A program made the position numbers and the translations under genes. Positions 5,000-64,000 of a DNA stretch of 64,000 bases are shown piece after piece. Each line of letters opens with the position of its first letter. Within the stretch, counting starts at the first letter, position 1. Below the pieces are notes generated by a model. It made no database searches and was not told the DNA's origin. It saw nothing but the letters and a program-made list of their open reading frames with translations. Source of the stretch: Sipunculus nudus (lineage: Eukaryota > Annelida > Sipuncula > Golfingiida > Sipunculidae); NCBI GenBank assembly GCA_026874595.1, contig CM049310.1, positions 40,181,558-40,245,557 of the forward strand. Reading direction: 5' to 3'.

Positions 5000-5990
5000 A
5001 TTCGAGGAACCTTGAACAATGTGTAACATGACACCAAGAGTGCTCAAAATCATGGATTTCGCCAATACACCTTAGATATAGGTTACAGTGACCTTATTTT
5101 ACATCCAGCTGCTAACATTTGTGCCCATCTGACTAACTGTGTTTTTTTCATAAAGCTTGCAGGTTATAGGTCACATGCAGTGACATTGTTTTTTTAGGTT
5201 TCCAAGAAATTTTTACAGGAACCTGAATCTTAATCAAATTAAAAGTTTCTTGGCCCAACTGTAACCCACCATGCAAATCTGCCCTATATGGTACTCATAT
5301 CATGTTCATTCACATATTTTCCAGAATTTAGGTCACTATGACTTAATTTCAGGTTTCCGAGGAGATATGCCTAGGACCTTCCTTGAAGTACAGTTAGAAG
5401 ATTCTAGTTTTAACGGTTACAGTTTGTCCTTTATTAACAGCCAGACCACTTCATTTGAAGGTCTCAAAATAGAGAAAAAAATGCGTAAAAAATAAAAAAA
5501 AAGTACAGGTGGTACCGCTATTCTGCAGGTACTTATGAATCACTTCATGTGGCTTAAAATGTTTTTGACCAGTAATATAGGTCACCTAATTTCAGGTTTC
5601 CATGGAGATTGCCCAAGATGTTTTGGGTGATAGCACGCTAAATATATGTCCCCATGACCTAATTTCAGGCTTTCATGGAGAATACCAAAGACTTCCCTGT
5701 AGTTTTTATTGGAACATTCTAGGGCTAACAGATACAATTTGTGCCCATCTGATTTTCAGGGTGCTAAAATCCATGTTTTTGGCCCATATTTCACAGAATA
5801 TAGGTCACCATGCCTAATTTAAGGTTTCCTTGCAGATTTATCCATGACCTGTGCGAATGTCATGTACGAAGATTCTAGTCCTAGCAGATACAATTTGTGC
5901 CCAGTCTGACTGGGTGCTCAAAATCATGTTTTCAGCCTGTATTTCACAAAATATAGGTCACCGTGACCTAATTTCAAGTTTTTGATTTGC
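5000..5990. repeat. Old interspersed repeat with recurring 'AGGTCAC..TGACCTAATTTCAGGTTTCC' modules
   Basis: The words 'TAGGTCACNNTGACCTAATTTCAGGTTTCC' and 'ACAATTTGTGCCCATCTGA' recur about every 100-200 bp. The same family is seen again at 20700-21896. A perfect 15-bp AGGTCA-CCG-TGACCT palindrome lies at 5955-5969. Small open frames here are not coding. 5990-6800 has no gene that I recognise. Confidence 0.65.
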
Positions 5991-23400: not shown

Positions 23401-26400
23401 TTTAATCATAAGTGGTATGTATATATATGCAGCTAGGAATCAGTCGTTTTATTCTACTGGAGCATTTCTATTAATATGTAGGTGTATATGGTAATTATGC
23501 TGCAAAATTCCCCCATCTGTATGCGTTTTTAAAAGCTTAAGTGAGCAATCAAAATGGGCTGCATAGGCTGCCGATGACGAAAAAACTTGTTAACTTGCAT
23601 AACCAGGAAACTGGTTAAACGGTCCAAATGACCGAAATTGCAAGTAAAAAGGCTTTGGGTCTCGAAGTAAGGTCATTCACAAGGATCAAGTCCGGCTCTC
23701 GAATGGCATGGCTGGGTCTCCGCTGCTGGGATCGGTGGAGGGAATGCGGGTTGCTTCTGGCTTTGTAGCTGTGGATGCTGTAGCTTTCTAACAAGGACAA
23801 AAACCCAGGAGAGAAGATGGCGCCCTATACGGCTCCCTGCTTGGCTTGGCGTGGCACTGCTTAGAGAACATGCTTAAGGAGCACACAGGGCTGAGGTCTT
23901 GACCGCAGCAACCTGTAGCTGCTCGATGAGCGTATACTTCTTTTGGCTTGGCTGCATAGGCATACATACTTAATACACATATATGGAATTATTCTAAGAG
24001 AATATCTCCAGTTTCTGGCTTCATATGTGTAGGTAAGGCATATGTCCTGCAAGTGCATTTATGTAGTGACAGCTTAATTTTAGACAAGTGTCCGTAAAGC
24101 CTAAGTCACAAACATTGCACAACAGGTATATACAACAGGTCTACCACAGAAAATTGGGGAAAATTCCTAGGATAGTTGTGGGTATGTCATACAAAACTCA
24201 GGTGATCTACGACAGAAAATGCTGTCATAGACCCTTGTCGTAGAAATTTGAACATGTTCAAAATTTTTCAGTGTTGTAGGTCAGTCTTTTCTTAAGGCCA
24301 GTCCTGTAGTTCTGTTGTACGATGCCTTACAACTGATTTACAATAAACCTACAAATTACATACAATTTTTAGCTCAGCTGACTATAAGTCATCTGAGCTA
24401 TAGTCATGGCCCATTGTCCGTCTTCCGTCCGTCTGTCTGTAGATGTGGCACGTTTTGAAACCGTAAGACCTAGGAATCCAAAATTAGGCATAATGTTCCC
24501 CAAGATCTCCTACCAAGTCAAAAACTGGGTCTTTGTGACTTCGTTCCTTTGAGAAATTAAGGAAAAAACCTCAATTTTTTATTTAAAAACTATTTTCACA
24601 CTTCAGGATCACCTAATATCAAAACAACTCATCTGTTTTCCTCATATTTGCCATAAATATTCCTCTATATAGTTCTATGTACATGCCAGAAATTAGGTCT
24701 GTATCATATAATTTCAAAAAAGTTGTGGGCTCAAATATAATGCATTTTGTAAAAAATCACGAAAGATATTTGATCACTTAACACAAAACATTTTAAAATA
24801 TTAGCAAAAATAAAAAATTTGTACCTGAGATTTTGCCCAACTTTGGCCACGGCACGTTTTTTTCCTGTAAGTACTGTGGATTTAATTTTCACACCATGTA
24901 TACATAAGGATTTAATCTGTTAAAATCTGAAATTTGAAAATAAAAGCTGCAAAATTAGGCTAGTTATTGAATTTTTTTGGAGGCTCTTGTTGTATTCCCT
25001 TACATTGTCAAGCAGTCCACTTTGGTCACTGTAGGTCATTCAGTGCAGCTCTCTATGCTCCCCAGGCTGTTGGCATAATGTTTAGATGTCCCCAAGATCT
25101 CCTACCAAGCTGAAAACTGGGTCTTTGTGACTTTGTTCCTTTGAGAAATTAAGGAAAAACCTCAATTTTTTATTAAAAAACCTGAGATGAAATTCTGATG
25201 AGACTTGGACAATTTTGATTTTTTAAGGAAAAAAATATCAGGAATTAAATCCTAATATTCAAATGTGATAAAATATTAGGATCTAATGTAAGTGCTAACT
25301 GACAAGATTTAAGAAGATATAAATACTTTGTAGCATTTTATTCATATCTCTTTAAGTTGGCAGGGCTTAGGTGTGAATAACACTGTTAACTTAGTATTAA
25401 AATTAGGAATATTGGTCAAACTTTGTGGGATTAATTTTTAACTCATATGGCCATATATTGAACAGCTGAAAACTTAATTACCTTCACACATTATTTTTTT
25501 ATGAAATGTTACTTTTATATAACACTTACCGTAGGCCTATTTGTTCCCTTGATGGATCACTAAATGGTTTAGCTCATGTCCATTATTCTATAATTTACAG
25601 AGTTTCATTTTAGCATGGCCATTTTCTAATAGCTTTTTTAAAGATAAAATACATGAAAAACCAAAAAATATAAAAAAATTTTGCAGTTACTTATATTTTC
25701 CAAAATTCAGCTGAGTGATGTGACCCATGGATCCCTTGTTTTATAACCTGAGGCCCTACAAATTGTAGGACTTTCCTATGACAGCCCAACGATTGTCGCA
25801 CATTCTACCTGTGACTGACCTACAAATATTCTACCATAGAAGGTCATTCCTGCAACTGCCATGGGTTTGTCTTTAGCTGAAGTCACATTTATCACACAAC
25901 ACAATTGAACACATATACAACAGGTCTACAACAAGAAACTGGGCAATTTTTCTTTTGTATTATGACCACCATACAGACCTCATAAGAATGTAGAGGCTAC
26001 AATTAGGCTAAGACAGCCCTGTTCAATTTCCCCACGACCTTAGAACAACAAATATATTAAATGCGAACACTTCCAAGACATTGTCAAAATAAGACTCTCC
26101 CAGACCTATGATGTCTCTATCTGTCGAGCCCTGCTGAAATTTTACGACAGTCAAAATCGTACTATGTTTGTGACTTAGGCTTAGGGTAATTTTCAGAAGA
26201 TGACAGCTCAAAATGACCATTTAAGATATAGACAATGCAAGCATCTTTTACCAGGCATTGCCAGGCAACACACCAGTAAGCATGACTTTTTACCTTCCTC
26301 ATGGCCTTGGCCAGCATCTGTATGCTACTCTGTATGTCACCACCGACCTGGAGACTCATGGCTGCGGCCTTGATGGCAGATCCCAGCTCCCTGATCCCTG

Positions 26401-42900: not shown

Positions 42901-44402
42901 ACTTCCTCGGTACAAAATAGGGGTGAGAACAGAACAGTAATGTTCTCTAGTGGCAGGGTTGGGTTTTGTCTGGATAAAACTTGTTTAATCCAGGACAATG
43001 GATAAAACTGGGTTTTATCTGGTTTAATCCAGTTTTATCCGGATTAAACTGGATCAAACTGGATAAACTAAGAACTGCCTTGTAAAATTTAATTAAATGA
43101 ACATAAATACTTATCTGGATAAATAAGTTCAGAAGGTTTATTGATATATTAACAATATTTAAGTTTCATTCATCCAATTATCAATTTCCTCCAGGTTCAT
43201 GTTTCACGGTTGTTAACACTCAGCAGCAACTGAAGCTTATGCTGAACACACACCAGAATGGGGAGCAGTCCATTTGCTTCTATGTAACTCTCCTGGCTGG
43301 TAGTCAATTTCTCAATAGGATGTATCATCTTTATGGCATCATCCTCAGCCATTAAATATTTACTTATAGTCAAAGGACAGGCTTACAGGGTGACTTTTGC
43401 AGCCAAATTGTCAACAACTTATACATGGAGTAGGATGCCTGAATGACTTTGATCCAATGGAGTTTTCTCCTCTCAGGCTGTCATAACTGGCTGGTTGTCA
43501 AAAGGTAGCTCACTGTTGCTGCTTGTGTAAACATGCCTTAAATTACCAGTGGTGAAAAGACAATCACCTTACTACCCCACATTCAGAGAAACAAACTTTG
43601 GCAAGATAGCTTTTCAAGCATTTTATCAATTGCGTCTGAGAAGTCTCCCCCTAAAAATTATAGGCAGCTGATATCACTGTATATCTTAAGTCATTTATGC
43701 AATATATGACTGGATTATGTACATCTCTCTCAGATGTAAGAATAGACGTTTATCTGTGAATATATGATATTCTATGGTATAAGTGATTGTTCAACTAAAC
43801 ATGTGTGAACTGCAGTTGTTTAGCTTTTTTATAGTGTAATGTACAAAAAAGGTGATAATGTTTATATTCAGAATATGACTATACCCGCCAATCTACCTAA
43901 CGGAGCAACAGAAGTAGCCCTGAAAATTCTAACCTGGTCTATGACGAAAGTCGGGGAAAACTGACCCTTTGATCACCAACCGGCTGCCACTGATAGCACC
44001 ACCGAAACCCTACACCCCTGTCGGTGTGACATAATTAATTAGCTAAGTGGTTTGATTAGGAGTTGTTATGCAATGCGTTGAACCGTTACCATTTTCATGG
44101 TCCGATGGCTGTGGTCTATGGTGCTGTAACTGATACATGTCTTGTGCTAATCCGTGTTGTTGTAATCATGTCGTGTCATTAATTATATTTGCAATACATA
44201 ATGCTTTCAGCAATACGCATATCAATTAAGTCCTCATGGTTAACTAATGCAACCCTCATAGACATATTACATTCCATATTGTAGTAATCATAACGGGTCA
44301 TTTATTTTTTTAGCAATACATAATCATATTAGCAATACGCACATCAATAAAGGTGACGCTCATAGATATATTTTATTATATTCCATATTGATGATGTTAC
44401 TT

Positions 44403-44433
<31 letters not shown>

Positions 44434-47400
44434 TTTATTCTATCACCAATATATTGTATGTATTTGTTTGCACAAATGTGGATGGAAATTATTAGATATA
44501 TCTTATTTCACTGTACAGTAGCTAATTAAAGCAATATTCGGATTGAGTAGTTTCCATCTTTCCCGGGGCACGAGCCGTGGATGGGAAACCCACCCCTCCT
44601 ATAGTCAGGCAAGGTTTCATGGAGTCGGGGTGTCATAGGAGTGGTTTCAACCTGATAAAGCCCCTTCAGACCCTGCATGTCAAGAAAACCTGTTTAATTC
44701 CACATAAGGGTTTCCTCGATCCAAAACTATATAAAGTTTAGCACTCCGAACGATGGTCACTTAACCGCCCCATCTTGTCCAGACAACATGGGGAGGTCAA
44801 AGCGTTTTCCATGTTCCGTTTGCTCGCAGAATTGTCATCAGAATGTGATTGAATGCTCTGCATGCCGAAAATGGACGCATATGGAGTGTCTCTCGATGGA
44901 CAAAAAAGAACTACAGTCCTGGCACCAAAAAGGTCTGGATTTCCTGTGTCCGTCATGCGCCTTTCTGGGGGACCAGTATAATATAGCTGCAGCTTTACAA
45001 AGGTAGGTGATTATAAGCTCATCTGCAATATAATATAATTAAATATATGTATTTGGTTTGTAAACTGGTCACACTTATTGATATCGAGCAGTAACAGAAG
45101 TCTTTATCAGATAAAGTCGCTTGGGGTTTTCCGTGTTGTGATATTTGTCTCATTCACTGTTAACACATCGTTATAATTATTCCCGACTGGGCGCATTTTT
45201 ATCTTTTTAATGAGAATATAATAAAAACTCAATTGAATAAAGATGAAGAAATGCATTAACAGATTATAATAATTATATATAAATTTTTTTGTACAGATTG
45301 AAAGCCTCTACCACAGAAGACCCAGCGAAAAGTGCTGCTTGTTACAACCAGGCGCGGACAGAGAGAAAGTTGTTGTCTACTTACAAGGTAGGAATATTTG
45401 CAGTTGTATAATATAAAAGGCTATTAATTCCGTATCGAATATTTCACAACGCAAACCGCATCTTACTTAATTTATATAGATAAATTTATACAGACCTCGC
45501 ACTTCAAATGTTTGTTAATCACTAAATGAAGCAATGATAATAATTTAAAATATCACCGATTGTTAAATATACGAATTAATTTCATTCACTTTCTGAGAGA
45601 CACTCCATATGCGTCCATTTTCGGCATGCGAACATTCAATCACATCCTGCTTGGTCAATTGGCTCTTTTGCTCGAAAATGAATTTTATGTATTTATTTTA
45701 GATTGCGTTACCGCAACCGATAGACCCAAATGGCCTGTATGGAATGGAAGACCAAGTTTCCGTGCAGATACTACAACGATTCCACCCTATAGTCCTTGAG
45801 GATTTTTCCCCGAGGGATGTCATCGGAGACGGCAACTGCCTCTTCAGGGCTGCATTGTTGGGCTACTTTGGTGAGGAAAAATATCATCAGTTGTTACAGC
45901 TGTTAACAGTCTTAGAAATATTAGACCATAGGCCATCTTACGATCAGTCACACAGGAAATTTGTCGACCTTATAAATGATGATAGGATTGTGTGTCCTGA
46001 TTTTGCGACATTAGTAAGAGAAACATGCACTGATGTAGATTATGCGTGCATGGTTCACATGTTTGCCCTTAGCGCAGTGCTACAAATACCCCTTAGGTCA
46101 TACTATCCACCAACCTCAAAAAATCAACTGGCAACAGAATCGCATAGTAGGCTAGTGTATGGGCGTAGCGTCAGCAGAAAGAAAACATGTACTGTCACTT
46201 TAATGTGGACCCAAATCGAAAGCTGTAAGAGCAAATCAAAATTTATCCCAAATCATTTTGTTCCCCTATGCCAGAGGCAAACTGTACCAGAAATTAGCAT
46301 TCTAATTGATAGTGATAGCGAAACATCACCTCAGACAGAAAAAACCCTCCAAAGGAAAGTACTCCTTTCCGCGTGTTTGATTCCCCTTCTTTCCCGCAAT
46401 CTCAAATATTTGACGCTGTTTCCCCTGTTCCCGATATCTCTGATAGCCCCCCCCCCAGCAGAATCAACACCTAACCCTGTCAAGGCGATTCCCAAATCAC
46501 AAGTTTATGACTCTTTACTGAAAGAAATGGATGTAACCCTAGGAAAACAAGATAAAACATCCGCAGCGAAGCCCAGGATTTCTAAACAAGTTAAATTTAA
46601 TCTAGGTTCAAACTTGTCATCCATGAATGATCGGGATATGTCAGATGTAGCTTGCCACAATTCAGACTGTTCTGAAAATGAATTTCAAAGCCCACCAAAC
46701 TTTAAATCAAATACAGGAAAATCAGCTGATCACTCAGCTGCATCTCCAGAACCATCTCAGATTGTCAATGATTCCTCTGATTCCATTCACCCTCTAAACT
46801 CAGACCCACAAAATGATCTTGAACAACTTCGATCACTGATAAAGAGCAAATCTGTAGGTACCCTGTCAAAAGATGGCGTTAGAGCATGAAATTATCCTCC
46901 AGCATTTGATATCCCCGCAAAATGTCCAAGACGTGGTTCCTAATGAGCCCAAAGAGGACCTGTATTTCATTGTACAAAATACAAAAAAACATTGAGAAAA
47001 AAAAACGGGGAAAAAGTCGGAATTCCACGACGATTGTGGGGTCTGGGATTCTAAAACAAACAGTACCAAGAAAAAATTCTTCATTATTAATCAAAACAAT
47101 CAAGTAGAACAAAAGGGGGGTCAATTAGGCATCAGGAAAGGCAAACAAGGGACCTATGGGTCACTGTGCTCAGCTGACGTTAACCTTGAAGGTAAAAATC
47201 TAAAATAATATCAAATGGAGATAAAGTGTAAGAGGAAGAGGTAATAAAGGCCATGGTTGGTTTATATGATTGGTTTGTATTGATGAGCAAGAAATTGTTG
47301 CAAATAATATTTTGTGACCTGACCATGTGTTTCCTAATGTTGAAACTGAAGCATGTGAGCAGTTTGTGAACAAATGATCTGTACAATTACCATGATCATT

Positions 47401-50400
47401 AGTTGGCTTTTTGATTAACTGTGGACATTTCAGTAGTTTAAACATTTGTTCAATCGAATCTTTTTTTTGTATAATATATATTATTAAATATATGTTTTTT
47501 TTTATGAAATGTATACAGTTGAAATATAACTAATTAACAACATAAAACATGGCAAACAAAGCCTGATCTCAAATTCTGCTGATGCAGGAAAATAATGAAC
47601 AAATGTTTGTAATAAATCCTCATTTTTTTATCACATCAATTTTTTTTTAATTTAAGTTTATATTTCTATACATTTTCAATATAACATATATATCTGAATA
47701 TTAAAGTTGATTCATAATTCTCAATTGCATCATCATAAATCTCAATCATGTCAGATAACACCACATCATGCATACAAATGTTTATTTATTTTTTACCACA
47801 AAAATATATCTTTTAAATCTGCAAAACAATAAATATCTAAAAAAAATACTTGATTTAGATTTCACAATTTTTAATTGTGTCTTTATTTATCCATAATGTG
47901 CTTCATATTTTATCATAATTTAAGCATACTGATGGGTTCCATTATGATTGGTAAAATGATTTAAAAGAAAAATGATTTCTTTAAAAATGCTACATTACAC
48001 AACATTACATCTTCTGGATTACACTTTGAATTACTTTCTCAAGGAAAGTTTTTGCATATCAGAGTGGAAACAGCAATACAATTAAGGAGATACAGTGAAA
48101 ACAATAACAATACTGCATAACACTTGGTGGGTTAGGTTTGCGGGCGGGGGGGGGGGGGGGTGATATTGGGGTGGTGATATGAGAATAACTGTACACCTGT
48201 CACAGCAGGGGATCTCCCCCAGTGACTGTAACAAATCAGAAACCCTGGCATAGCTGACTTCCAGTGACCTGGAGTGGGACCCTGCATCTGTAACCTCTAA
48301 TCAAAGCAAATGACTACAATAGAGCCTCAAGAAAAAAATCAATAACTAGCTTAATTTTCAAGCTTTTATTTCCAAATTTCAGATTTAAACAAATTAAATA
48401 TTTATGTTTACATGCTGTGAAAATTAAATCAATGGTACTTACAGGAAAAAAACGTGCCATGGTCAAAGTTGGGCAAAATTTAAGGTACTGATTTTATTTT
48501 TATGCTAATTACTTAAAAAATTTACAAAATTCAGATCTAATTTTGGGTAAGCAATTGAATCTTAATTAAACATAGTTATATACTTGGGAAAATAGACTCT
48601 AGTTTCAAAATTTTTCATGTTAAGTGAGTAAATATTTTTCCTGATTTTTTACAAAGTCCATTATGTTTGGGCCCATAACTTAAAGAATTTATACTTAACA
48701 GACTTAATTTCTGGCATGTACATAGGAACTATATGGAAGAATATTTATGGTAAATATGAGGAAAAACAGATGAGTGGTTTTGATATTAGGCAGTCCTGAA
48801 GTGTGAAAATAGGATTTTAATAAAAAATTGAGGTTTTTCCTTAATTTCTCAAAGGAATGAAGTCGCAAAGACGCAGTTTTCGGCTTGGTAGGAGATCTTG
48901 GGGACATCTAACATTATGCTGAATTTTGGATTCCTAGGTCTTACGGTTTCAAAACGTGCCACATCTACGGACGGACGGACGGACGGACGGACGGACGGAC
49001 GGACGGACGGACGGACAGACGGACGGACGACGGACAATGGACCACGACTATAGCTCAGATGACTTATAGTCAGCTGAGCTAACAAAAAACATTTGAGCCA
49101 TTAGAGCCTCAGCCCTCTGAGCACCTTTTGATTATGCAAAAAAATTATTGTACCTCAAAACTGTCAGGAAATTACAAACGACGCGTTACTTGGATCAGTC
49201 AGGCTCCTGCGTCGATCCCCGAACAGGCCTTGAACCTAGCAATCTATGAATATTCCGGTAGGTACCCGGGATCGTCTGTTCACGGAAACTCGCAGTTTTC
49301 CGCCCACCCTTACACACGTTGTACAGGCGAAACAATGGAAACTATAGCTGAGCGATCCAAAACTACAAAGCCAAAGCAGGTATACAACCAAATGAACAGG
49401 GAAAACGGGGAGGGGGGCAGGCCCATAGATGTGAAGCAGGTTAGAAATAAAAAGTATCGGGAAGCCAAAAAGCAAAAAACAAATATCGGATCATCTCAAA
49501 ATTATGCGGACAATGTTATCAGTTTGGAAAACCTGGTGTACAGTCACCCTTTTGTTAAACATGTGTCCCACCATAAAGATATCGGCGCTACTGTCATTCT
49601 GTACACCGATGGACTGGCGGCCGCGAAATTTACATGAACTAGCGATGAAGATATACGAAACCGTTCAGGCTCAGTATATCGACTTTCAAAGGGCACTTTA
49701 CGGCCGTGGCATGTGTGTGCTTAGCGAGGCATACAAAAACCATTTCATTGACCCGGCGATTTGGGAGATAAAATCAGAGGAAGAAAGACAGAAATTGTTC
49801 ATGCGCTTTTTAAAAGACAGTAAGCCTGAATTTAAAAAGCACTTTGTCCATTCAACTGATGGTTCAAGGTTCGTGCCTACGCCCTGCGGTGGCAAAAAAA
49901 ACGCACCAAAGCAAACGTAAACGGGCAGAGCGTTCCAGGACTCCCAAAACCTGCGCCAAGAAACTTAAATTTTAATTATGAAGGCCTTATAATTTGGTTT
50001 AAGAATAGGAATAAACTTAAACGGCATTGCATTCTGTGTGCCACTGGTCAGTGGTATCGCAGTTCGTCATGTCATATAAATTAAACTTTTCTAGGGATAG
50101 AAATAAACATAAACGGCATCGCGTTCTGTGTGCCACTGGTCAGTGGTATTGCAGTTCGTCATGTCATATAAATTAAACTTTTCTAGGGATAGGAAAAAAC
50201 ATAAACTGCATCGCGTTCTGTGTGCCACTGGTCAGTGGTATCGCAGTTCGTCATGTCACATCATTGTTTATATTTTTGTTTTGTAAATAACAGTGTCAGT
50301 TGTATCTGTGTACTGTATTGTTGTATATACAGACCATGTATTGATCTTGTACAAAATGAATGTACCCCACATATTTATTTATTGTTGCATATAAGGAATA

Positions 50401-50627
50401 TGCCATGTCTTTTATGTATATACAGATGTATATAACACCCTCATACCGTTGTATATTATATATATATTGAGCATGTAAATACCTTGTACATTATGCTTGT
50501 AAATTGCTATATGCGCTTAAATTTATATGCAGATATATATAACACACACACATATATTGTATATACTGAATGCAAATCTGGATGTATATGAATGTATATA
50601 CCTATATGTAGATGAGACATGTATATT

Positions 50628-50658
<31 letters not shown>

Positions 50659-53600
50659 CAGACACAATATGCAGTTGTTATTTAACATATGCATGTGTTG
50701 GTTTTGAATAAGGAGTAGATATATTCAATATATACATTAAGAGAATTGTACATCACAGTATAGTGTTCTAGAATATATACTTGGCAGGCGCTGTGTGTAA
50801 TTATTGAGAATAGCTTGTAATTTTATTAAATATGTTTTATAATGTATATGTATGTGTGCCAGTGTCTATGACGGATATGACCCAAGGAATTTATCGATGC
50901 TCTTTATAAGAATGAACGATTAAATATCTATGCACGGTGTTTGCTACTGTATATAGCGTGGATGATATTTGTTGTGAAAGAATATTGGAGTAATTTATGA
51001 TGAATACCAATATTTAGTAGTTGTTACACTGTACAACAATTATGGACTTTGCTTTGGGGTAGCACTTTTGGTAAAACAGTAAACTATCTATTACCTATAT
51101 AGTGGTCATTGGATTTAAAGCAGTATATCCAGTTGAATAAGTGTAATTTTCCGTGTTACATATCAGTTATGAAATATTTCAGGTTTGGGGGTAAGCTGCA
51201 TGTTATTGATCTCGCAAGTTAATTAGTTAATGCCTCAATGCATACAATTTAATCAGTCTTAGGATATAGAATGAACAGAATAAACAGTCTGTTTATCAGA
51301 TAATTTGAGACCCTTTTTTAGTATAGTTTGGAATCAATCTTTGAATCTGGTAAAAATTAAATTGTCCACTCACATAATTAATCATTGAATCTGGTAAAAA
51401 AAAGTCCACTCACAAAATCACACCTGTTTGAGAAAGGGTAATAACGCTACCTTGTGGCCGGATTAATAATTAAAATGAGGCCTTTTTCTTGGGATCTTGA
51501 CAATATCGTGCATTATACATCATTAAGTGTCTGTATGCATTTAATTAATATTTTTCAGCTAGTTCTGTTGTCCCAGGCATTACAGCTGGGTCCCGGACGA
51601 TATTCTGGGGGTCCCGGACGGTGTCGGACGGTCCCGGACGGTAAATAGTCACACCGAGCTAAACTTAATAAAACAAGGGACCTATGGGTCACGAAGCTCA
51701 GCTGTTATATATGATAAAAAAATATTATTTAGAAATGAGGCACATGCTGGATTTGTGTGGTAATAAATATAAGCTGTATTATGAGTTGTTGTTTAGCTTA
51801 TGATTTTGATAGTACCTTGGGAGACAGGGAAGAGGATTGATTTCATTTATTTTATTAACAAATGGAGTACTACTGTCACACAGATTTTGACTTGGCCATA
51901 TAACTTATAAGCAGAACATATAATATAAGAGTTTAACTATTTATAAAAAAAATACAAATATTGTCCCAAATATAATTTTTATAAAAAATAATAAGAGAAT
52001 CATATGATTTTTTAAAATGAAATATAACTGATATGATTATTAAAATAATATTAAAGAATATATTCATGAATGCATTCATGAATACATTTTGAAAGTATTT
52101 GCACAAGTATTCATTTATTTTCATTTTTACCTGAATTCCCATTCTTTATGCAAGAAATTTTATAATGGAGTACAAAATCATATTCATATTTAAATACAAT
52201 TACAAAGTATTTGCACCATGTCTGGAATTTATTCAGTTTTCACCAAACAATGATGTTGAGAATCCAGAATATACAAAATTCACACATTTAAATAATGATC
52301 ATAAGTACCTGGTTTTATGGCTTTTATTTATATTAAAAATAACTGTAAAAAATTCATTTGGACTAATTTCACATCAATGTACACACTAGACACAGCAGGA
52401 ATCTAGATTAATATTATCAACTGCATCTTTGTCTAATTTCCTTCATATGATCCCTAAAGATTAGTAATGAATAATATGATTTACTTCTTTATCATTAAAA
52501 TTGAACTGAAAAATGCCATAGGTGACTGCATGGTGTTATTTGGAATATGTGACATTCTACCTATTGATACAAGATTCTTATATCATCAGTAACTGCAAGT
52601 TAATTTCCTGTTATTATAAACTAACAAATTCCTTTTCTATTTTTCTTTAATTTGTTATTAAAAACCAATAAAAATTTATTAATTTATTGTTTATTGTTAT
52701 GTTGTTGGTTAAAACTACTAGATGAGTTGGGTTGGACACCTGGATCAACTGTGGCTGGCCATAAGCTGCCTGGATTCCATGTATGCCTCGCCTCAAGCGT
52801 GCATAATTTGATGAAAGGTCAACAAGGTCAACATACAGGTGACTCAAGAGGGGCTGGAGAGAGCCAAAGTCTGACAGGGTCTCATAAAAAACATTAATAA
52901 AATCTACAATTTTTGGCCAATTTCTTTAAGCTTTCTAAACTAAAAAGCTGAAATGCTTATGTGTGCATGATATGAAAATTATATCAACAGTGCTCACGGG
53001 AAACAAACGTGCCATGGTCACAGTTGGGCAAAATTTAAGGTACTAATTTTATATTTATACTAAATAAAATTTGAAAAATTCAGAACTAATTTTGGGTATT
53101 CAATTGAATCTTGATTAAATAATGTTACATCCCTGACAAAAAAATCTCCAGCTTCAGCAATGCTCTTGTTAAGGGAGTAAATATATTTCTTGATTTTTTA
53201 CAAAGTGCATTATGTTTGGGCCCATAACTTAAAACAATTACACAATACTGACATCATTCTGGCATGTGCATAGAGAATGAAAAATATGTATATTATTTAT
53301 GATTAAAGTCAGATCAGTGGTTTTGATATTAGGCAGTCTTGAAGTGTAACAATGGGTTTTTAATGGAAAAATGAAGTTTTTCATTAATATCTCGAATGTC
53401 CTAGTGACCAAATTCTTGGCATGGTATGGCATTTTGGAGACATCTAACTGTATGCCGAATTTAAGGAACTTAGAGCTGAAGCTGGGGAGCTGAGCTCTTG
53501 CAAACTGCATAACACTAGCTTGATGTAAACAATATGTTACATGGTGCTTGAAAACTTGATTAAAATCTACAGTTTTTGATCAACTGGTTTCAAATTTTTG

Positions 53601-54915
53601 GTGTTAACAGTTGAAATGCTAACAAAAACATGCTGTGAAAATTAAATCCACAGTACTCACAGGAAAAAAACGTGCCATGGTCAAAGTTGGGCAAAATTTA
53701 AGGTACCAATTTTTTATTTTTATTAATATTTTAAAAAATTTAATAGATTTTCATCTAATTTTGGGTATACAATTTAATTTTGATTAATTAAAGTTATATT
53801 ACTGGAAAAAAGGTCCATAGCATTAACATTTTTTGTGTTAAGTGATCAAATATCTTTTCTGATTTTTTACAAAATGCATTATGTTTGGGCCCATAACTTT
53901 TTTAAATTAAATAATACAGACATAATTTCTGGCATGTACATAGGAACTATATAGAGGAATATTTATGGTAAATATGAGGTGAAACAGATGAGCGGTTTTG
54001 ATATTAGGCAGTCCTGAAGTGTGAAAATAGGTTTTTAATAAAAAATTGAGGTTTTTCCTTAATTTCTCAAAGGAACGAAGTTGCAAACACCCAGTTTTCG
54101 GCTTGGTAGGAGATCTTGGGGACATCTAACATTATGCCGAATTTTGGATTCCTAGGTCTTATGGTTTCAAAACGTGCCACATCTACGGACCGACGGACGG
54201 ACGGACGGACGGACGGACGGACGGACGGACGGACGGACGGACGACGGACAATGGACCACGACTATAGCTCAGATGACTTATAGTCAGCTGAGCTAAAAAT
54301 GTCTACTTCACAGACAGTATACACCCTAACTTTGGATAAAACTGGATAAAACCTGTTTTATCCAATCCGGATTAATCCAGATTTTTCCAGTGGATTAAAC
54401 CGGCTGCGGATAAAACTGCCAACCCTGTCTAGTGGTCAAATATACAATACCATACACATAGATGTACTGAACATCAATCAATGGATATATGTTAAATCTC
54501 ACAGGTGTGTATGGAGTGTTATTATCACAGTTAACTGCAGGGGCAATCTATGGACTCCACAGTGAGTCAGTCACTGTAAAAAGCAAAGTTCTGAGGAGTT
54601 CATTCTTATGGGCCAACTTTTAGGCTGTTTTAGGTAGACGAACCTTCGTGCACATTTGGATCAGGAAGCACGCGTTTTAGACAGTCAAGTTGCGGGGGAC
54701 CCCACGCGAGGGAAGTGCCGCTTACCTCTGGGCTCGTTGGTCGACCGGTCACGCACCGGTCGTAAGTCTGTAATCTCGCCATATTTGCCAAATGCTTCTT
54801 TAAAAACGTTTTCATCTGCTCCACGTGCACCTAAGATGAACAGTCGTGTGTAGGGTGGCTCATCACGCGAATTTCTGTCACGGTCTCCATAGTCGCGGTC
54901 TCTTCTGTTCGCCAT
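20244..54915 (-). CDS. RBM45: RBM45, RNA-binding motif protein 45 (whole gene model, 10 coding exons)
   Basis: Exons: 54915-54726, 39610-39513, 38754-38623, 37422-37296, 33552-33355, 29296-29141, 28178-28064, 26420-26294, 22360-22153 and 20431-20244. The spliced length is 1539 nt, giving 512 residues with every phase agreeing. Four RRM folds are visible. RRM1 spans about 23-96 (RNP2 LFILGA, RNP1 GITYITFK). RRM2 spans about 121-185 (LFIMIP, RGLAFVKF). RRM3 spans about 266-330 (KLEIVG, GVGCASYK), lacks the usual aromatics and is degenerate. RRM4 spans about 416-490 (RLFIVA, KNYGYARF). An Arg/Ser/Tyr-rich linker lies at 184-248, an Ala-rich helical segment at about 340-381 matches the oligomerisation region of the family, and a basic tail (GKKRRW...EEEKKARIH) looks like a nuclear localisation signal. 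Known vertebrate RBM45 is a nuclear RNA-binding protein linked to splicing. Introns are unusually repeat-laden. Confidence 0.95.
20700..21896 (+). repeat. Interspersed repeat in RBM45 intron 9, three modules, hairpin end
   Basis: Modules of about 290-340 bp repeat 'GGGTAACAGAGACCTAATTTCAGG', 'TTCATGGTGATCAATGCATTAG' and 'GTGCCNCCAGTCTGCAGAAACTGATG'. The copy ends with a CAGACAGACGACGGAC tract and GCTATAGCTCAGATGACTTA then CTCGGCTGAGCT (about 21855-21888). The same hairpin ends the (GGAC)n elements at 47146 and 51674. The interior is related to 5000-5990. Confidence 0.65.
22153..22360 (-). CDS. RBM45: RBM45 exon 9 (first half of RRM4)
   Basis: The acceptor CTTGTTTTCAG precedes GCGGAAG. It encodes AEDPTPSELGLENLPFCSVP, a Pro/Ser linker, then QERLFIVAQPDAPPERYIRD and VFSRFGDLIEVFFLA. 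'FSRFGDLIEV' matches FCRFGNLIEV in known RBM45. It ends phase 1 at GCAA followed by GTAAGA. Confidence 0.95.
22620..23390 (+). repeat. Interspersed repeat in RBM45 intron 8 ('TCTGGTGACCTCTGACCTCATT' family)
   Basis: Four modules of about 130-190 bp carry 'GTGACCTCTGACCTCATTAAATATGCATG' pieces followed by 'GTTTCATCAAAATCCAT'. It ends in 'AAAAGTTAACGGACAGAAGCACAGAC'. The same family is at 27130-27660. Confidence 0.65.
24098..26181. mobile_element. Candidate inverted-repeat element in RBM45 intron 8 containing a nested element
   Basis: AGCCTAAGTCACAAACAT at 24098-24115 is the exact reverse complement of 26164-26181 (18 bp). The interior contains the reverse-oriented (GGAC)n-family element at 24369-25738. 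A further direct partial copy of the left end occurs near 25869-25930 (AAGTCACATTTATCACACAAC, CAACAGGTCTAC), so the structure may be two copies. The target duplication is uncertain. Confidence 0.45.
24369..25738 (-). mobile_element. (GGAC)n/hairpin-ended element, copy A4 (reverse)
   Basis: Read on the minus strand it begins CAAGGGATCCATGGGTCAC with CTCAGCTG nearby and ends in CAGCTGAGCTAA. Just before that end lie a GGAC-type tract (24413-24440) and GTTTCAAAACGTGCC. Two internal modules both contain 'CTTGGTAGGAGATCTTGGGG'-like sequence (near 24510 and 25100). It is the same family as 47146-49082, 51674-54296 and 62002 onward. Confidence 0.75.
26294..26420 (-). CDS. RBM45: RBM45 exon 8 (Ala-rich helical oligomerisation segment)
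   Basis: 42 codons: ATEAPDAGIRELGSAIKAAA, MSLQVGGDIQSSIQMLAKAM, RK. The predicted amphipathic helices fall where the family has its homo-oligomer-assembly segment. The 3' splice site is a CAGCAG tandem: using the first CAG (exon from 26423) would insert one residue (Ser before Arg). It ends phase 0 at AAG followed by GTAAAA. Confidence 0.88.
27130..27660 (+). repeat. Interspersed repeat in RBM45 intron 7 (same family as 22620)
   Basis: It shares 'ATCTGGTGACC...GTGACCTCATT', 'GTGGTGACCTCTGACCTC' and the closing 'CTAAAAGTTAACGGACAAACAGACAGG'. Non-coding. The rest of intron 7 is AT-rich. Confidence 0.65.
28064..28178 (-). CDS. RBM45: RBM45 exon 7 (second half of RRM3)
   Basis: The acceptor TTATTGTTTCAG precedes GTGTTGG. 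It encodes VGCASYKTPQCAAWAKDKLN and GFEYPPGSRLMVQFSTQ. The words GFEYPPGSR match the GFQYPPGNR of known RBM45. The donor AAAG followed by GTTAGA gives phase 2. The open frame continues beyond it (LESDVGLLMK), but only this donor restores the frame of exon 8. Confidence 0.92.
28240..28560 (+). repeat. Interspersed repeat fragment in RBM45 intron 6 (GGTCAAGGTCACC family)
   Basis: It carries TTTGACCTTGAAGGCCCAGTTCAAGG and GATGAAGGTCAAGGTCACCAG, with a GACAATGACGACAGACGATAGACC tail. The tail type matches the other families in the window. Confidence 0.55.
29141..29296 (-). CDS. RBM45: RBM45 exon 6 (first half of degenerate RRM3)
   Basis: The acceptor TTTCATTTCAG precedes ACCTGTC, and G+AC gives Asp249. 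It encodes LSEPIDRIQSFPNNGITKLE, then IVGSPGISQEQMYALFNVVP and GLDSIQFNLQS. The 'QEQMYALFNVVPGLDSIQ' part matches the EEQLFSIFDIVPGLEYCE signature of RBM45 RRM3. The exon starts and ends in phase 1, with a GTAAGT donor. Confidence 0.94.
29640..31863. mobile_element. TA-flanked inverted-repeat element in RBM45 intron 5, 2224 bp
   Basis: CCGTAAATCTTGTTTTTATG at 29640 faces the reverse complement of CCGTAAATCCTGTTTTTATC at 31863 (about 27 bp with four mismatches). TA lies at both junctions (29638-29639 and 31864-31865). About 0.8 kb of the interior (30300-31100) is clearly homologous to 16690-17520, although the terminal repeats differ beyond CCGTAAA. No intact transposase is visible. Confidence 0.75.
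33355..33552 (-). CDS. RBM45: RBM45 exon 5 (end of RRM2, disordered Arg/Ser/Tyr linker)
   Basis: The acceptor CATTTGCAG precedes CCTATAAAG. It encodes YKAVYANPKENKDQSS, closing RRM2, and then a low-complexity stretch with many R, S, P, Y and W residues (for example DLYESRYDPYSAPRSYRM and SFHSPPRR). It ends phase 1 at GTAGGA. The linker is probably disordered. This exon accounts for part of the extra length over the vertebrate protein. Confidence 0.94.
33848..33904. repeat. TA microsatellite in RBM45 intron 4
   Basis: An uninterrupted TA run of almost 60 bp. It produces YIYIYI-type false frames on both strands. Confidence 0.97.
34560..36440. repeat. Satellite of about six 288-bp units rich in TGACCT half-sites
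   Basis: The landmark CTCCTGTGACCTTCACC recurs at about 34751, 35040, 35328, 35617 and 35898, with a diverged copy at 36186. Spacings are 289, 288, 289, 281 and 288. The 281 unit lacks eight bases of CTCATGACC. Each unit holds GTGACCTTGACCTTTGACC (a DR0 plus DR1 arrangement of TGACCT) and a second cluster, CACCTTTGACCTTGTGACCT. Inner units are nearly identical and outer ones diverged. Repeated open frames on both strands are by-products. Confidence 0.95.
36430..36990 (+). repeat. Interspersed repeat in RBM45 intron 4 (ends GCGGCGGCGGGA)
   Basis: It contains ATTCAAGGTCAAGGCCACTAT, AATAGGTGGCGCCACCAG, ACCTATTCAAGGTCAAGGAC and an end GATTCATATGCGGCGGCGGCG. A similar end (CCTATGCGGCGGCGGTGGG) closes the repeat at 58890. 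Confidence 0.6.
37296..37422 (-). CDS. RBM45: RBM45 exon 4 (second half of RRM2)
   Basis: The acceptor CTCATTATCAG precedes GAATATGG. The exon encodes EYGEISYVQILREKSSGESR, then GLAFVKFYRGYHAALAYENC and DS, with RNP1 RGLAFVKF. It ends phase 1 at a GTGTGT donor. The last base T joins CC of exon 5 to give Ser183. Confidence 0.94.
38623..38754 (-). CDS. RBM45: RBM45 exon 3 (inter-RRM linker, first half of RRM2)
   Basis: 44 codons, phase 0 on both sides. It starts VVMASRKEEGNQRDESDR and runs into RLFIMIPKDFTEEQVKERFK, matching the [20 protein letters not shown] type of segment in known RBM45. The acceptor (GATAAG before GTGGTC) has a weak pyrimidine tract. The donor is AAG followed by GTCAGT. 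A longer in-frame read-through beyond 38623 is intronic. Confidence 0.92.
38980..39180. repeat. Repeat fragment in RBM45 intron 2
   Basis: A CTGTCAGTCCCTCTGTTTGTCTGTCC tract is followed by ATTTCATTCAAATTTGGT. This is the reverse-orientation counterpart of the GACAGACAGA-type tails found in other repeats of the window. No coding signal. Confidence 0.4.
39513..39610 (-). CDS. RBM45: RBM45 exon 2 (RNP1 and end of RRM1)
   Basis: The acceptor TTCTTTGCAG precedes 39610. The two first bases complete Gly64, followed by ITYITFKKTSEAVLAMEEMN and a GYPKPLK end. This is the second half of RRM1 with RNP1 (GITYITFK). It ends phase 0 at AAG followed by GTAAGC. Vertebrate RBM45 has the equivalent KPIKV end. 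Confidence 0.95.
40047..40083. repeat. CA/TA microsatellite next to the hammerhead ribozyme
   Basis: CA dinucleotides run at about 40050-40069 with TATA-containing flanks. On the minus strand it lies directly downstream of the ribozyme element. Confidence 0.95.
40082..40201. repeat. Inverted repeat enclosing the hammerhead
   Basis: TATGCTACGGTATGTAATTG near 40082-40101 and the reverse complement of TATGCTAAGGTATGTGATGG near 40200 form arms of about 23 bp with few mismatches. The ribozyme sits between them. They may be element ends or an extra closing stem. Confidence 0.6.
40105..40149 (-). ncRNA. Type I hammerhead self-cleaving ribozyme (Penelope-like element type)
   Basis: Read on the minus strand: CAGTCAC (stem I, 40149-40143), CTGATGA (core, 40142-40136), GTC-TATGA-GGC (stem II hairpin with one G-U pair), GAAA (core, 40124-40121), C-TGGTT-G (one-base-pair stem III), TA, then GTGATTG (stem I partner, 40111-40105). 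The 7-bp stem I pairs throughout (one G-U). The cleavage triplet GUA obeys the NUH rule, with the cut after 40112. All conserved core bases are present. A very short stem III is typical of hammerheads in Penelope-like retroelements (family knowledge). No reverse transcriptase lies nearby, so this is an isolated remnant. Confidence 0.82.
42551..42622. other. Nested palindrome in RBM45 intron 1
   Basis: AGGTAGCC (42551-42558) pairs with GGCTACCT (42615-42622). Inside, GCAACAG (42572-42578) pairs with CTGTTGC (42590-42596). The segment is GC-richer than its surroundings. The function is unknown. The remaining 40200-42950 DNA shows no gene. Confidence 0.5.
42954..43080 (+). repeat. Left terminal and subterminal repeats of the 11.5-kb element
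   Basis: It begins CAGGGTTGGGTTTTGTC and continues as a cluster of GGATAAAAC, TTTAATCC and GGATTAAAC words, many of which can pair with each other. This kind of array is typical of transposase-binding subterminal regions (inference). Confidence 0.8.
44160..44400. repeat. Tandem duplication (~130-140 bp unit) upstream of the transposon gene
   Basis: Two copies share TTTGCAATACATAAT, CAGCAATACGCA, CATCAAT, CTCATAGA and ATTCCATATTG in order. A GA microsatellite follows at 44408-44434. The function is unknown. Confidence 0.7.
44728..44736 (+). promoter_or_regulatory. TATA box of the transposon gene
   Basis: TATATAAAG lies 52 bp before the ATG at 44788. It is preceded by a GC-richer stretch (44560-44720) that stands out from the surrounding AT-rich DNA. 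A start of transcription near 44760 would leave a short leader. This is inference from position. Confidence 0.5.
44788..46889 (+). CDS. Transposon-encoded PHD finger - OTU (vertnin-like) protein, three exons
   Basis: Exons 44788-45002, 45297-45387 and 45702-46889 join in frame with GT/AG borders to 497 residues. Residues 9-57 form a PHD zinc finger: C9-x2-C12, C23-x2-C26, H31-x2-C34, C54-x2-C57, with Trp29. Residues about 130-295 resemble an OTU-fold cysteine protease. DGNCLFRA gives the catalytic Cys148, and PNHFVPL gives His287 near the end. The stretch CMVHMFALSAVLQIPLRSYY followed by a TLMW strand matches the OTU-like domain of vertnin and related transposon proteins. The remainder (about 300-497) is Ser/Asp-rich and probably disordered. 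It may be a separate protein or the N-terminal part of a longer transposase polyprotein, because a second open frame overlaps its end. Confidence 0.8.
45595..45650 (-). repeat. Inverted copy of part of the PHD exon inside the gene's second intron
   Basis: 45595-45629 is the exact reverse complement of 44860-44894 (35 of 35 bases, covering the codons around C26-H31-C34). Similarity continues through CATTCAATCACAT to about 45650 with a few changes. The unspliced transcript could fold into a hairpin of about 50 bp. Confidence 0.9.
47146..49082 (+). mobile_element. (GGAC)n/hairpin-ended element, copy A1, inside the transposase ORF
   Basis: It starts CAAGGGACCTATGGGTCAC and GCTCAGCTG. It ends with an ACGG/GGAC tract (48963-49030) and TAGCTCAG-ATGACTTATAGTCAG-CTGAGCTAA. 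Removing 47146-49082 joins two codons of the host ORF without shifting frame. The sequence AACAA is present at both junctions. It has no coding capacity. The layout recalls Helentron-associated (HINE) or bivalve 'pearl' elements (family knowledge). Confidence 0.8.
48963..49030. repeat. GGAC microsatellite within element A1
   Basis: About 13 tandem GGAC units lie near the 3' end of the element, followed by GACGACGGACAATGGACC. Confidence 0.97.
49990..50262. repeat. 92-bp tandem repeat, three copies
   Basis: GTGTGCCACTGGTCAGTGG recurs with CCACTGG at 50041, 50133 and 50225. Each unit also has ATAAACRTAAACGGCATYGC and CAGTTCGTCATGTCATATAA. It lies immediately 3' of the transposase remnant. From 50265 to 51580 the DNA is AT-rich with ATATAT and GAGA microsatellites (50628-50660) and no gene. 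Confidence 0.9.
51590..51650. repeat. GGTCCCGGACGG short tandem repeat
   Basis: Four to five imperfect CCCGGACGGT words in an otherwise AT-rich context. Confidence 0.8.
51674..54296 (+). mobile_element. (GGAC)n/hairpin-ended element, copy A2, two internal modules
   Basis: It starts CAAGGGACCTATGGGTCACG and ends in a GGAC tract (54187-54243) plus the TAGCTCAG...CTGAGCTAA hairpin. The module beginning 'CGTGCCATGGTCA.AGTTGGGCAAAATTTAAGG' occurs twice (53010 and 53670); A1 has one. Its first 2 kb are nearly identical to copy A3 at 62002. It lies inside the 11.5-kb element next to its right end. Confidence 0.85.
54299..54427 (+). repeat. Right terminal and subterminal repeats of the 11.5-kb element
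   Basis: GGATAAAACTGGATAAAACC, CCGGATTAATCCAG and TGGATTAAACCGGC words lead to GCCAACCCTG at 54418-54427. They mirror the left end in word content, although base-by-base identity beyond the first nine bases is loose. Confidence 0.8.
54726..54915 (-). CDS. RBM45: RBM45 exon 1 (start, first part of RRM1)
   Basis: The ATG at 54915-54913 has a strong context (CAAAAATGGCG). The frame is open upstream as far as a GTG at 54930, but there is no earlier ATG. The exon encodes MANRRDRDYGDRDRNSRDEP, an Arg/Asp-rich head, then RNP2 of RRM1 (RLFILG) and GKYGEITDLRPVRD. It ends after AGA-G (phase 1) at a GTAAG donor (54725-54721). Confidence 0.95.
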
Positions 54916-61900: not shown

Positions 61901-62001
61901 ATTAAATCAACAGTGCTTGCAAGAAAACAATATGTGATGGGCAAAGTATATAGGGTGACATTCATGGTATAGTGATTTGACATTAAGCTGGTTACTTTAA
62001 A

Positions 62002-64000
62002 CAAGGGACCTATGGGTCACGACGCTCAGCTGTTATATATGATAAAAAAATATTATTTAGAAATGAGGCACATGCTGGTTTTGTGTGGTAATAAATATAA
62101 GCTGTATTATGAGTTGTTGTTGTTTAGCTTATGTATGATTTTGATAGTACCTTTGGAGACAGGGAAGAGGATTGATTTCATTTATTTTATTAACAAATGG
62201 AGTACTATTGTCACACAGATTTGACTTGGCCAAATAACTTATAAGCAGAACATATAATGTAAGAGTTTAACTATTTATTTAAAAAAATTACAAATATTGT
62301 CCCAAATATAATTCTTATAAAAAATAATAAGAGAATCATGATTTTTTTAATTGAAATATAACTGATATGATTATTAAAATAATATTAAAGAATATATTCA
62401 TGAATGCATTTTGAAAGTATTTGCACGAGTATTCATATACTTTCATTTTTACCTGAATTCCTATTCTTTATGTAAGAAATTTTATAATGGAGTACATAAT
62501 CATATTCGTATTTAAATACAATTACAAAGTATTCGCACCATGTCTGGTATTTATTCAGTTTCACCAACCAATGATGTTGAGAATCCAGAATATACAAAAT
62601 TCACACATTTAAATAATGATCATAAGTACCTGGTTTTATGGCTTTTATTTATATTAAAAAATAACTGTAAAAAATTCATTTTGGACTAATTTCACATCAA
62701 TGTACACACTAGACACAGTAGGAATCTAGATTAATATTATCAACTGCATCTTTGTCTATCATTAATTTCCTTCATATGATCCCTAATGATTAGTAATGAA
62801 TAATATGATTTACTTCTTTATCATTAAAATTGAACTGAAAAATGCCATAGGTGACTGCATGGTGTTATTTGGAATATGTGACATTCTACCCATCGATACA
62901 AGATTCTTATATCATCAGTAACTGCAAGTTAATTTCCTGTTATTATAAACTAACAAATTCCTTTTCTATTTTTCTTTAATTTGTTATTAAAAACCAATAA
63001 AAATTTATTAATTTATTGTTTATTGTTATGTTGTTGGTTAAAACTACTAGATGAGTTGGGTTAGACACCTGGATCAACTGTGGCTGGCCATAAGCTGCCT
63101 GGATTCCTGTATGCCTCGCCTCAAGCGTGCATAATTTGATGAAAGGTCAACAAGGTCAACATACAGGTGACTCAAGAGGGGCTGGAGAGAGCCAAAGTCT
63201 GACAGGGTCTCATAAAAAACATTAATAAAAGCTACAATTTTTGGCCAATTTCTTTCAGCTTTCTAAACTAAAAAGCTGAAATCCTAATGTGTGCATGATA
63301 TGAAATTTATATCAACAGTGCTCACAGGACACAAACGTGCCATGGTCACAGTTGGGCAAAATTTAAGGTACTAATTTTATATTTATACTAATAACTTATA
63401 AAATTTGAAAAATTCAGAACTAATTTTGGGTATTCAATTGAATCTTGATTAAATAATGTTACATCCCTGACAAAAAAAATCTCTAGCTTCAGCAATGCCC
63501 TTGTTAAGGGAGTAAATATATTTCTTGATTTTTTACAAAGTGCATTATGTTTGGGCCCATAACTTAAAACAATTACGCAATACTGACATCATTCTGGCAT
63601 GTGCATAGAGAAAGAAAAATATGTATATTATTTATGATTAAAGTCAGATCAGTGGTTTTGATATTAGGCAGTCTTGAAGTGTAACAATGGGTTTTTAATG
63701 GAAAAATGAAGTTTTTCATTAATATCTCGAAGGTATTAAGTCCTAGTGACCAAATTCTTGGCATGGTAGGGGATTTTGGAGACATCTAACTGTATGCCGA
63801 ATTTAAGGAACTAAGAGCTGAAGCTGGGGAGCTGAGCTCTTGCAAACTGCATAACACTAGCTTGATGTAAACAATATGTTACATGGTGCTTGAAAACTTA
63901 TTAAAATCTACAGTTTTTGATCAACTGGTTTAAAATTTTTGGTGTCAACAGTTGAAATGCTAACAAAAACATGCTGTGAAAATTAAATCCACAGTACTTA
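62002..64000 (+). mobile_element. (GGAC)n/hairpin-ended element, copy A3 (cut by the window end)
   Basis: It begins CAAGGGACCTATGGGTCACG and follows copy A2 (51674 onward) almost base for base to the end of the window, differing by scattered substitutions and small indels. The second module and the 3' hairpin would lie beyond 64000. Confidence 0.9.

What the first reader, a model, noticed from the sequence alone, without database searches (positions are those of the whole stretch)
42946..54435. 11.5-kb DNA transposon with a perfect 8-bp target duplication in RBM45 intron 1
The direct 8-mers TCTAGTGG lie exactly outside CAGGGTTGG...CCAACCCTG ends separated by 11,474 bp. The interior carries its own multi-exon gene on the strand opposite to RBM45. 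Large autonomous-type elements with PHD and OTU cargo are poorly described. The subterminal arrays of GGATAAAAC/GGATTAAACC words suggest a structured transposase-binding region.
Basis: partly seen in the sequence, partly recalled or inferred. Interest (0 to 1): 0.85.

Follow-up and report, generated by a model that had tools for sequence, protein, structure and literature searches.

The report
Jumping genes nested inside jumping genes
What looked like one 11.5-kb jumping gene in an intron is best read as a stack of ordinary ones: a short 1.2-kb element made the duplicated target site, and a larger, now broken transposase gene and two further repeats later landed inside it.

Summary
The ends are real. 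TCTAGTGG flanks CAGGGTTGG…CCAACCCTG exactly, and the genome holds 145 similar left ends and 206 right ends. The 11.5-kb unit is not one transposon.

Of 20 fetched relatives, 17 have both sides; 14 of these are 1.20–1.28 kb and 10 have perfect 8-bp duplications. They form a non-autonomous, probably hAT-type family.

The PHD–OTU gene belongs to a different element, about 43865–51656. Its two sides match 39 further listed places each and form 18 neighbouring pairs. A short copy has its own ends and a 9-bp duplication. Of 100 listed outer left ends, none lies within 15 kb of those places or of 73 PHD/OTU matches.

In L040, OTU and a MULE-like transposase core share one 903-residue frame, so PHD and OTU look like N-terminal transposase domains, not cargo. 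The window's copy is dead: left end and catalytic core are missing. Two Helitron-like repeats add 4.6 kb.

One locus, L050, has a transposase fragment of another lineage beside an outer copy, a partial counter-example. The outer family's transposase was not found.

The parts
42946..42953 (.). 8-bp target duplication TCTAGTGG, left copy
42954..43863 (+). Outer element, left part: end CAGGGTTGG, subterminal array of GGATNAAAC words to about 43070
43865..51656 (+). Inner element: PHD-OTU-MULE transposon, left end deleted (junction somewhere in 43856-43865), right terminus GTCACACCG at 51656
44788..45002 (+). Exon 1 of inner gene, PHD finger
45297..45387 (+). Exon 2 of inner gene
45702..46889 (+). 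Exon 3 of inner gene, OTU domain with DGNC and NHF motifs kept; the frame stops at 46889 while similarity to L040 goes on in another frame from 46879
46879..47145 (+). Further piece of the same gene in another frame (KKTGKKSEFHDDCGVW...), interrupted by repeat A
47146..49082 (+). Helitron-like repeat copy A (CAAGGGACC...CAGCTGAGCTAA), inserted in the gene; empty site seen in L042 and L043
49083..49604 (+). Gene resumes, region before the catalytic core
49624..49893 (+). C-terminal piece of the transposase in another frame; the core that should lie before it is absent
51657..51673 (+). Remnant of the outer element's middle (AGCTAAACTTAATAAAA)
51674..54296 (+). Helitron-like repeat copy B, inserted in the outer element; relative at 61999-63998 is 95% identical
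54297..54427 (+). Outer element, right part with subterminal array and end CCAACCCTG
54428..54435 (.). 8-bp target duplication TCTAGTGG, right copy
54726..54915 (-). RBM45 exon 1, coding part

Best explanation
A 'Russian doll'. Step 1: a roughly 1.2-kb non-autonomous hAT-type element inserted into an intron of RBM45 and duplicated 8 bp, moved by a transposase supplied from elsewhere (8-bp duplications shown; a hAT transposase as the mover is inferred). Step 2: a MULE-type transposon whose one gene encodes PHD finger + OTU domain + DDE transposase inserted into the middle of it (shown by the boundary at 51656 and by uninterrupted short copies). Step 3: a deletion over the left junction removed the inner element's left end and about 170 bp of the outer element (inferred from what is missing). 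The inner gene also lost its catalytic core and its reading frame (shown). Step 4: two copies of a Helitron-like repeat inserted, one in the inner gene and one in the outer element (empty sites shown; order inferred). The locus as it stands encodes no working transposase.
For: Outer family: 384 first-look candidates, 40 scored; 145 left ends and 206 right ends, reversed controls 0. Of 20 fetched copies 17 have both sides; 14 are 1.20-1.28 kb; duplications perfect in 10, one mismatch in 4, two in 1, three in 1, and in 1 (L025) the left terminus is lost. 31 of 100 listed left ends pair with a listed right end, 24 of them at 1.05-1.28 kb. Words GGATNAAAC/GTTTNATCC in 14 short copies: 85 in the left 130 bp, 0 in 13,562 interior bases, 56 in the right 140 bp. 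Inner boundaries: 31 of 39 non-window left places begin exactly at 43865; of 39 non-window right places 20 stop exactly at 51656 and 26 within 2 bp; 18 left/right pairs within 12 kb. The window's AGCTAAACTTAATAAAA just right of 51656 is the short element's own middle (found in 4 of 14 short copies by a strict pattern). Short inner copy L044+L046 has ends GGGTGTGACTATTTACC/GGTAAATAGTCACACCG and 9-bp TSD GAAAAAGAG. L043 joins the gene with the same right terminus. One gene: OTU and MULE-like core in one 903-residue frame in L040; 9 of 26 distinct C-terminal places, the window one of them, have a PHD/OTU hit upstream on the same strand within 14 kb. Core missing: the window aligns to L040 residues 31-565, while D587, D657 and E776 lie beyond (catalytic roles inferred from motifs). 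Empty sites of repeats A and B.
Against: L050 (C6:12967000-12970760) also has an outer left part, itself interrupted, followed by a 5'-truncated transposase 97% identical to L040. A gene inside or beside an outer copy is therefore not unique to the window, though this is another lineage and another position. The inner left TIR is absent in the window, so its own duplication cannot be seen there. Only one inner copy (L044) gave a clear duplication: L045's is unclear, and for the copy at C1:40.53 Mb no left end was found in the 791 bases fetched. Four inner left matches start 6-9 bases before 43865, so the junction is not fixed to the base. No outer copy with a hAT transposase was found. Longer outer pairs exist (1.9, 2.1, 3.0 twice, 9.9 and 12.8 kb). 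Apart from the 1.9-kb one (L021) they were not read, and some may be false pairs.
Confidence: 0.93

Rival explanations
1. One large autonomous element: the PHD-OTU-MULE gene and the CAGGG ends belong together, and the 1.2-kb copies are internal-deletion derivatives.
For: Ends and gene lie between one perfect 8-bp duplication; 8 bp lies in the MULE range of 8-11 bp (PMC6446971, passages); L050 has a transposase fragment beside an outer left part.
Against: The 1.2-kb copies carry middle sequence that the window lacks (171 bp in L020), so they are not simple deletions of it. The gene segment has its own boundaries, shared with 39 further listed places on each side, and its own 9-bp duplication in L044. 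0 of 100 listed left ends lie within 15 kb of 39 inner-left, 39 inner-right or 73 PHD/OTU places. L040, with the open 903-residue frame, has no CAGGGTTG or AACCCTG in 8.5 kb.
Confidence: 0.04
2. The PHD-OTU part is a host gene fragment or domesticated gene captured by a transposon (cargo).
For: Exons 1-3 keep an open frame of 497 residues while the transposase part is broken.
Against: In L040 OTU and DDE core share one frame; PHD/OTU hits lie upstream of C-terminal hits at 9 of 26 places; PHD/OTU is multi-copy (76 matches).
Confidence: 0.03
3. The outer 1.2-kb family is moved by a MULE or another 8-bp-duplicating superfamily (such as Zisupton), not by hAT. This rival concerns step 1 only.
For: 8-bp duplications are not exclusive to hAT (Zisupton 8 bp, PMC12730594, passages; MULE 8-11 bp, PMC6446971). 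No hAT-bearing outer copy found. The window's own duplication does not fit nTnnnnAn.
Against: Ends of CAG type like the hAT MITE Mar (CAG(G/A)GGTAGGC, PMC3517528, passages). 6 of 11 perfect duplications fit the Hermes pattern nTnnnnAn, binomial P 3e-4 (pattern in PMC10368747, passages). Short TIR with dense subterminal words.
Confidence: 0.2

Closest known systems
hAT MITEs such as Mar of Drosophila willistoni (PMC3517528, passages seen)
   Same: 8-bp duplications, CAG-type short inverted ends, many copies; no coding part seen in the window's outer pieces
   Different: About 1.2 kb instead of 610 bp; duplications lean to nTnnnnAn (Hermes pattern), not the Buster nnnTAnnn of Mar (0 of 11)
MULE elements with OTU or PHD modules: MuDR-6_HM (OTU) and Rehavkus (PHD finger, 9-bp duplication), table of PMC6446971 (passages seen)
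   Same: MULE-like DDE transposase; OTU in one, PHD finger in the other; L044 has a 9-bp duplication
   Different: Here PHD and OTU come together in one gene upstream of the DDE core; no sequence comparison with those elements was possible
Ginger1 transposons (PMC2836005, passages seen)
   Same: DDE transposase joined to an OTU or Ulp1 protease domain, one family with a PHD finger
   Different: In Ginger1 the OTU/Ulp1 domains are C-terminal and the core is Gypsy-integrase-like; here OTU is N-terminal and the core matches Pfam MULE

Membership tests
hAT (outer 1.2-kb element) | 8-bp target duplication | tested here: met
   10 of 17 two-sided copies perfect, 4 with one mismatch
hAT (outer 1.2-kb element) | short CAG-type inverted ends | tested here: met
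   CAGGGTTGG/CCAACCCTG in the window and with small changes in the copies; general hAT end consensus recalled, Mar ends
hAT (outer 1.2-kb element) | target preference nTnnnnAn (Ac/Hermes type) | tested here: inconclusive
   6 of 11 perfect duplications fit, P 3e-4; the window's does not
hAT (outer 1.2-kb element) | hAT transposase encoded by an element with the same ends | tested here: inconclusive
   150 hAT dimerisation matches scored of 667 candidates; of the 142 compared, 2 lay within 15 kb of one of 100 right ends. By position both lie beyond the left end, outside the outer element; only one of the two places (L047) was fetched and read
Mutator-like (inner element) | MULE-type DDE transposase in the family | tested here: met
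   L040: Pfam MULE E 1.2e-5, though 26.1 bits is just under the curated cut-off of 27.6; motifs VDRTFNL, GSDDE, CTRHLER, NNNAES
Mutator-like (inner element) | 8-11 bp target duplication | tested here: inconclusive
   9 bp GAAAAAGAG in L044/L046, up to 11 bp if the ends are set one base shorter; L045 unclear, C1:40.53 Mb not resolved
Mutator-like (inner element) | long inverted ends (a feature of many, not all, MULEs) | tested here: met
   L045 120-130 bp at 73%, by self-comparison
Mutator-like (inner element) | catalytic core present in the window copy | tested here: not met
   window aligns to L040 residues 31-565, then only to the C-terminus
Helitron (nested repeats A and B) | 3' end CTRR, no target duplication, Rep-helicase | tested here: inconclusive
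   ends in CTAA; empty sites agree with no duplication or a 2-bp one; no coding part looked for; Helitron features recalled

The most novel reading that the evidence does not exclude
The inner element represents an undescribed MULE clade whose single gene fuses a PHD chromatin reader and an OTU deubiquitinase-type domain to the DDE transposase, with at least one locus (L040) holding an uninterrupted 903-residue OTU+DDE frame. Such a transposase might choose targets by chromatin mark and act on ubiquitinated repair factors.
Probability: 0.35. Interest if true: 0.55.

Novelty: new member of a known kind. Interest (0 to 1): 0.3.

Why it matters
It corrects a tempting reading: one clean target duplication around a large interval does not prove one large element, and nested insertion can mimic cargo capture. 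The by-product of some interest is a multi-copy family of transposases in which PHD and OTU appear as N-terminal domains of a MULE-like protein. It offers material to ask why ubiquitin proteases join transposases again and again, a link raised in print for Ginger1 (PMC2836005, passages).

Tried and rejected
Tried without result. Relatives of the window's proteins in IMG/VR: searches found none; one search gave one 18-residue match, L001, taken as chance. DNA pattern in IMG/VR (L002, L003, not followed). Genome contigs and IMG/VR with a recalled transposase core (none). Paper searches for a PHD+OTU MULE listed no title under that description, which is weak evidence because only open-licence papers are held and I saw listings, not texts, for most. 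A link to vertnin was dropped. The idea that CGGTGTGAC at 44022 is the inner left end was dropped after L044 showed that stretch to be internal. Search for an autonomous outer copy near hAT transposases: L047 holds a hAT fragment outside the outer copy.

Rows dropped or not compared. The 20 outer copies are the first 20 of 39 non-window places, ranked by left-end similarity; 3 of the 20 showed no right end in the fetched stretch. One search printed matches of 150 bases or more. One search used 18 gene places of the 76 matches. One search used 100 listed right ends of 206, 142 of 150 hAT places and the same 18 gene places. One search used 64 left ends picked by hand of the 100 listed; one search repeated it with all 100 listed (145 exist), 100 listed right ends (206 exist), all 73 non-window PHD/OTU matches and all 26 non-window C-terminal matches. 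Only L050 came up among left ends. One right end (C4:89051717) has an inner right end 8.1 kb away, outside the outer element.

Full report
What was claimed and what is there. The 8-mer TCTAGTGG lies directly outside CAGGGTTGG (42954) and CCAACCCTG (to 54427) and nowhere else in the window. The window is C5:40181558-40245557 of an unnamed 1.43-Gb genome of 153 contigs. The surrounding gene is RBM45 on the minus strand. Its exon 1 is 54915-54726, followed by a GTAAGC donor, and the insertion lies 290 bp behind it. The next exon was not located. Taken alone, a duplication plus 9-bp inverted ends is only moderately unlikely: 7 chance pairs arose in 20 shuffles. The genome makes the case.

The outer element is a family of mostly 1.2 kb. 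The left 255 bp gave 39 scored non-window matches out of 384 candidates, 34 of them starting within one base of the base after the duplication. A 27-base left-end pattern with up to one mismatch occurs at 145 places and a 20-base right-end pattern at 206, with none in the reversed controls. I fetched 20 copies, the first 20 of the 39. Seventeen have both sides and 14 of these measure 1.20-1.28 kb. Duplications are perfect in 10, off by one in 4, by two in 1, by three in 1, and one copy has lost its left terminus. Of the 100 listed left ends, 31 pair with one of the 100 listed right ends. Twenty-four of these pairs measure 1.05-1.28 kb and the rest 0.5, 1.9, 2.1, 3.0 (twice), 9.9 and 12.8 kb; since both lists are partial, the long pairs may be false. 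The words GGATNAAAC/GTTTNATCC occur 85 times in the left 130 bp, never in 13,562 interior bases, and 56 times in the right 140 bp of the 14 short copies. Such terminal arrays recall the subterminal repeats that the BED domains of the Hermes hAT transposase bind (PMC10368747, passages). Six of 11 perfect duplications fit the Hermes target pattern nTnnnnAn, P 3e-4; the window's own does not. I did not find an element with these ends that encodes a hAT transposase, although hAT transposases are common in the genome (150 scored matches of 667 candidates).

The gene belongs to a second element. Of 39 non-window places that match the stretch from 43840, 31 begin exactly at 43865; four start 6-9 bases earlier, so the junction is not fixed to the base. 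Of 39 that match the stretch around 51656, 20 stop exactly there and 26 within 2 bp. Eighteen left/right pairs lie together in the genome, 15 of them under 1 kb apart start to start. None of 39 outer left places is within 12 kb of any of these or of 18 gene places. None of 100 listed outer left ends is within 15 kb of them or of any of 73 PHD/OTU matches, and among 100 right ends one has an inner right end 8.1 kb away, outside the element. A short inner copy (L044 with L046) shows the family's ends, GGGTGTGACTATTTACC and GGTAAATAGTCACACCG, and a 9-bp duplication GAAAAAGAG. A second copy, L045, has 120-130 bp inverted ends at 73% but no clear duplication. At C1:40.53 Mb no left end was found in what could be fetched. 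Immediately right of 51656 the window reads AGCTAAACTTAATAAAA, which is the middle of intact short outer copies. The inner element therefore lies inside the outer one. Its left end and about 170 bp of the outer middle are missing, best explained by a deletion over that junction (inference).

PHD and OTU look like part of the transposase gene. The window gene has three exons with a PHD finger (E 1.7e-5) and an OTU match just under the curated cut-off (E 8e-4, 20.4 of 23.3 bits). In L040 one uninterrupted frame of 903 residues holds OTU (E 2.7e-5, over the cut-off) and MULE (E 1.2e-5, 26.1 bits, just under 27.6), with a PHD hit about 1 kb upstream. Nine of 26 distinct places encoding the C-terminal part, the window among them, have a PHD/OTU hit upstream on the same strand within 14 kb. 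Against L040 the window aligns over residues 31-565. The putative catalytic residues D587, D657 and E776 lie in the missing part, and the C-terminal piece follows in another frame. The gene also shifts frame near 46880 and is cut by repeat A. This copy cannot make a transposase.

Two Helitron-like repeats make up 4.6 kb. Copies A (47146-49082) and B (51674-54296) share the ends CAAGGGACC...CAGCTGAGCTAA with a copy at 24365-25738 (minus); a fourth, from 61999, is 95% identical to B as far as the window reaches. L042 and L043 show the gene without A, and short outer copies show the site without B. The Helitron label rests on the CTAA end and the lack of a clear duplication, and was not tested further.

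Against my reading. L050 has an outer left part, interrupted, followed by a 5'-truncated transposase 97% identical to L040, a lineage about 38% identical to the window's. It is the only case among 100 listed left ends and differs in lineage and position, so I take it as another nested insertion. A reader may hold it as a hint that these transposases favour such sites. The 3.0, 9.9 and 12.8-kb outer pairs were not read.

Comparison with the literature. MULEs duplicate 8-11 bp; MuDR-6_HM carries an OTU domain and Rehavkus a PHD finger (PMC6446971, passages). Ginger1 carries OTU or Ulp1 at the C-terminus (PMC2836005, passages). The hAT MITE Mar is a fair model for the outer element (PMC3517528, passages). 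Expansion of the MULE domain is reported for two deep-sea clams (PMC7826175, PMC9993606, passages). That the genome is a mollusc's is my inference from repeats and recall, not a result.

Verdict. The one-element reading is not supported, and the parts are known kinds of element. The PHD-OTU-MULE family may deserve its own description.

Noticed in passing
L040 (G000:C6:58343300-58351800), minus strand 2299-5007: Uninterrupted 903-residue frame with OTU and MULE-like transposase domains, PHD hit about 1 kb upstream; no CAGGGTTG or AACCCTG end words in the 8.5-kb stretch.
   Followed up: partly
window 24365-25738 (-), 47146-49082, 51674-54296, 61999-64000: Interspersed repeat CAAGGGACCTATGGGTCAC...CGGACGG microsatellite...CAGCTGAGCTAA, four places in the window (the last runs off the end), with empty sites for two; Helitron-like, reminiscent (recalled) of bivalve repeats with ACGG microsatellites.
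   Followed up: partly
L050 (G000:C6:12967000-12970760): Outer-family left part, interrupted, followed by a 5'-truncated transposase of the L040 lineage.
   Followed up: partly
G000:C1:78323960-78376753: Tandem cluster of outer-element ends repeating roughly every 12.3 kb, as if a larger unit had been duplicated.
   Followed up: no
G000:C4:226411-229430 and C4:970080-973094: Two outer-type pairs of ends 3.02 kb apart, a possible longer subfamily that could carry the missing transposase.
   Followed up: no
window 44860-44894 and 45595-45629: Perfect 35-bp inverted repeat: a piece of the PHD exon reappears inverted in intron 2 of the inner gene, seen less perfectly in L042 and L043.
   Followed up: no
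window 50000-50275: Three tandem copies of a 92-bp unit behind the transposase remnant.
   Followed up: no
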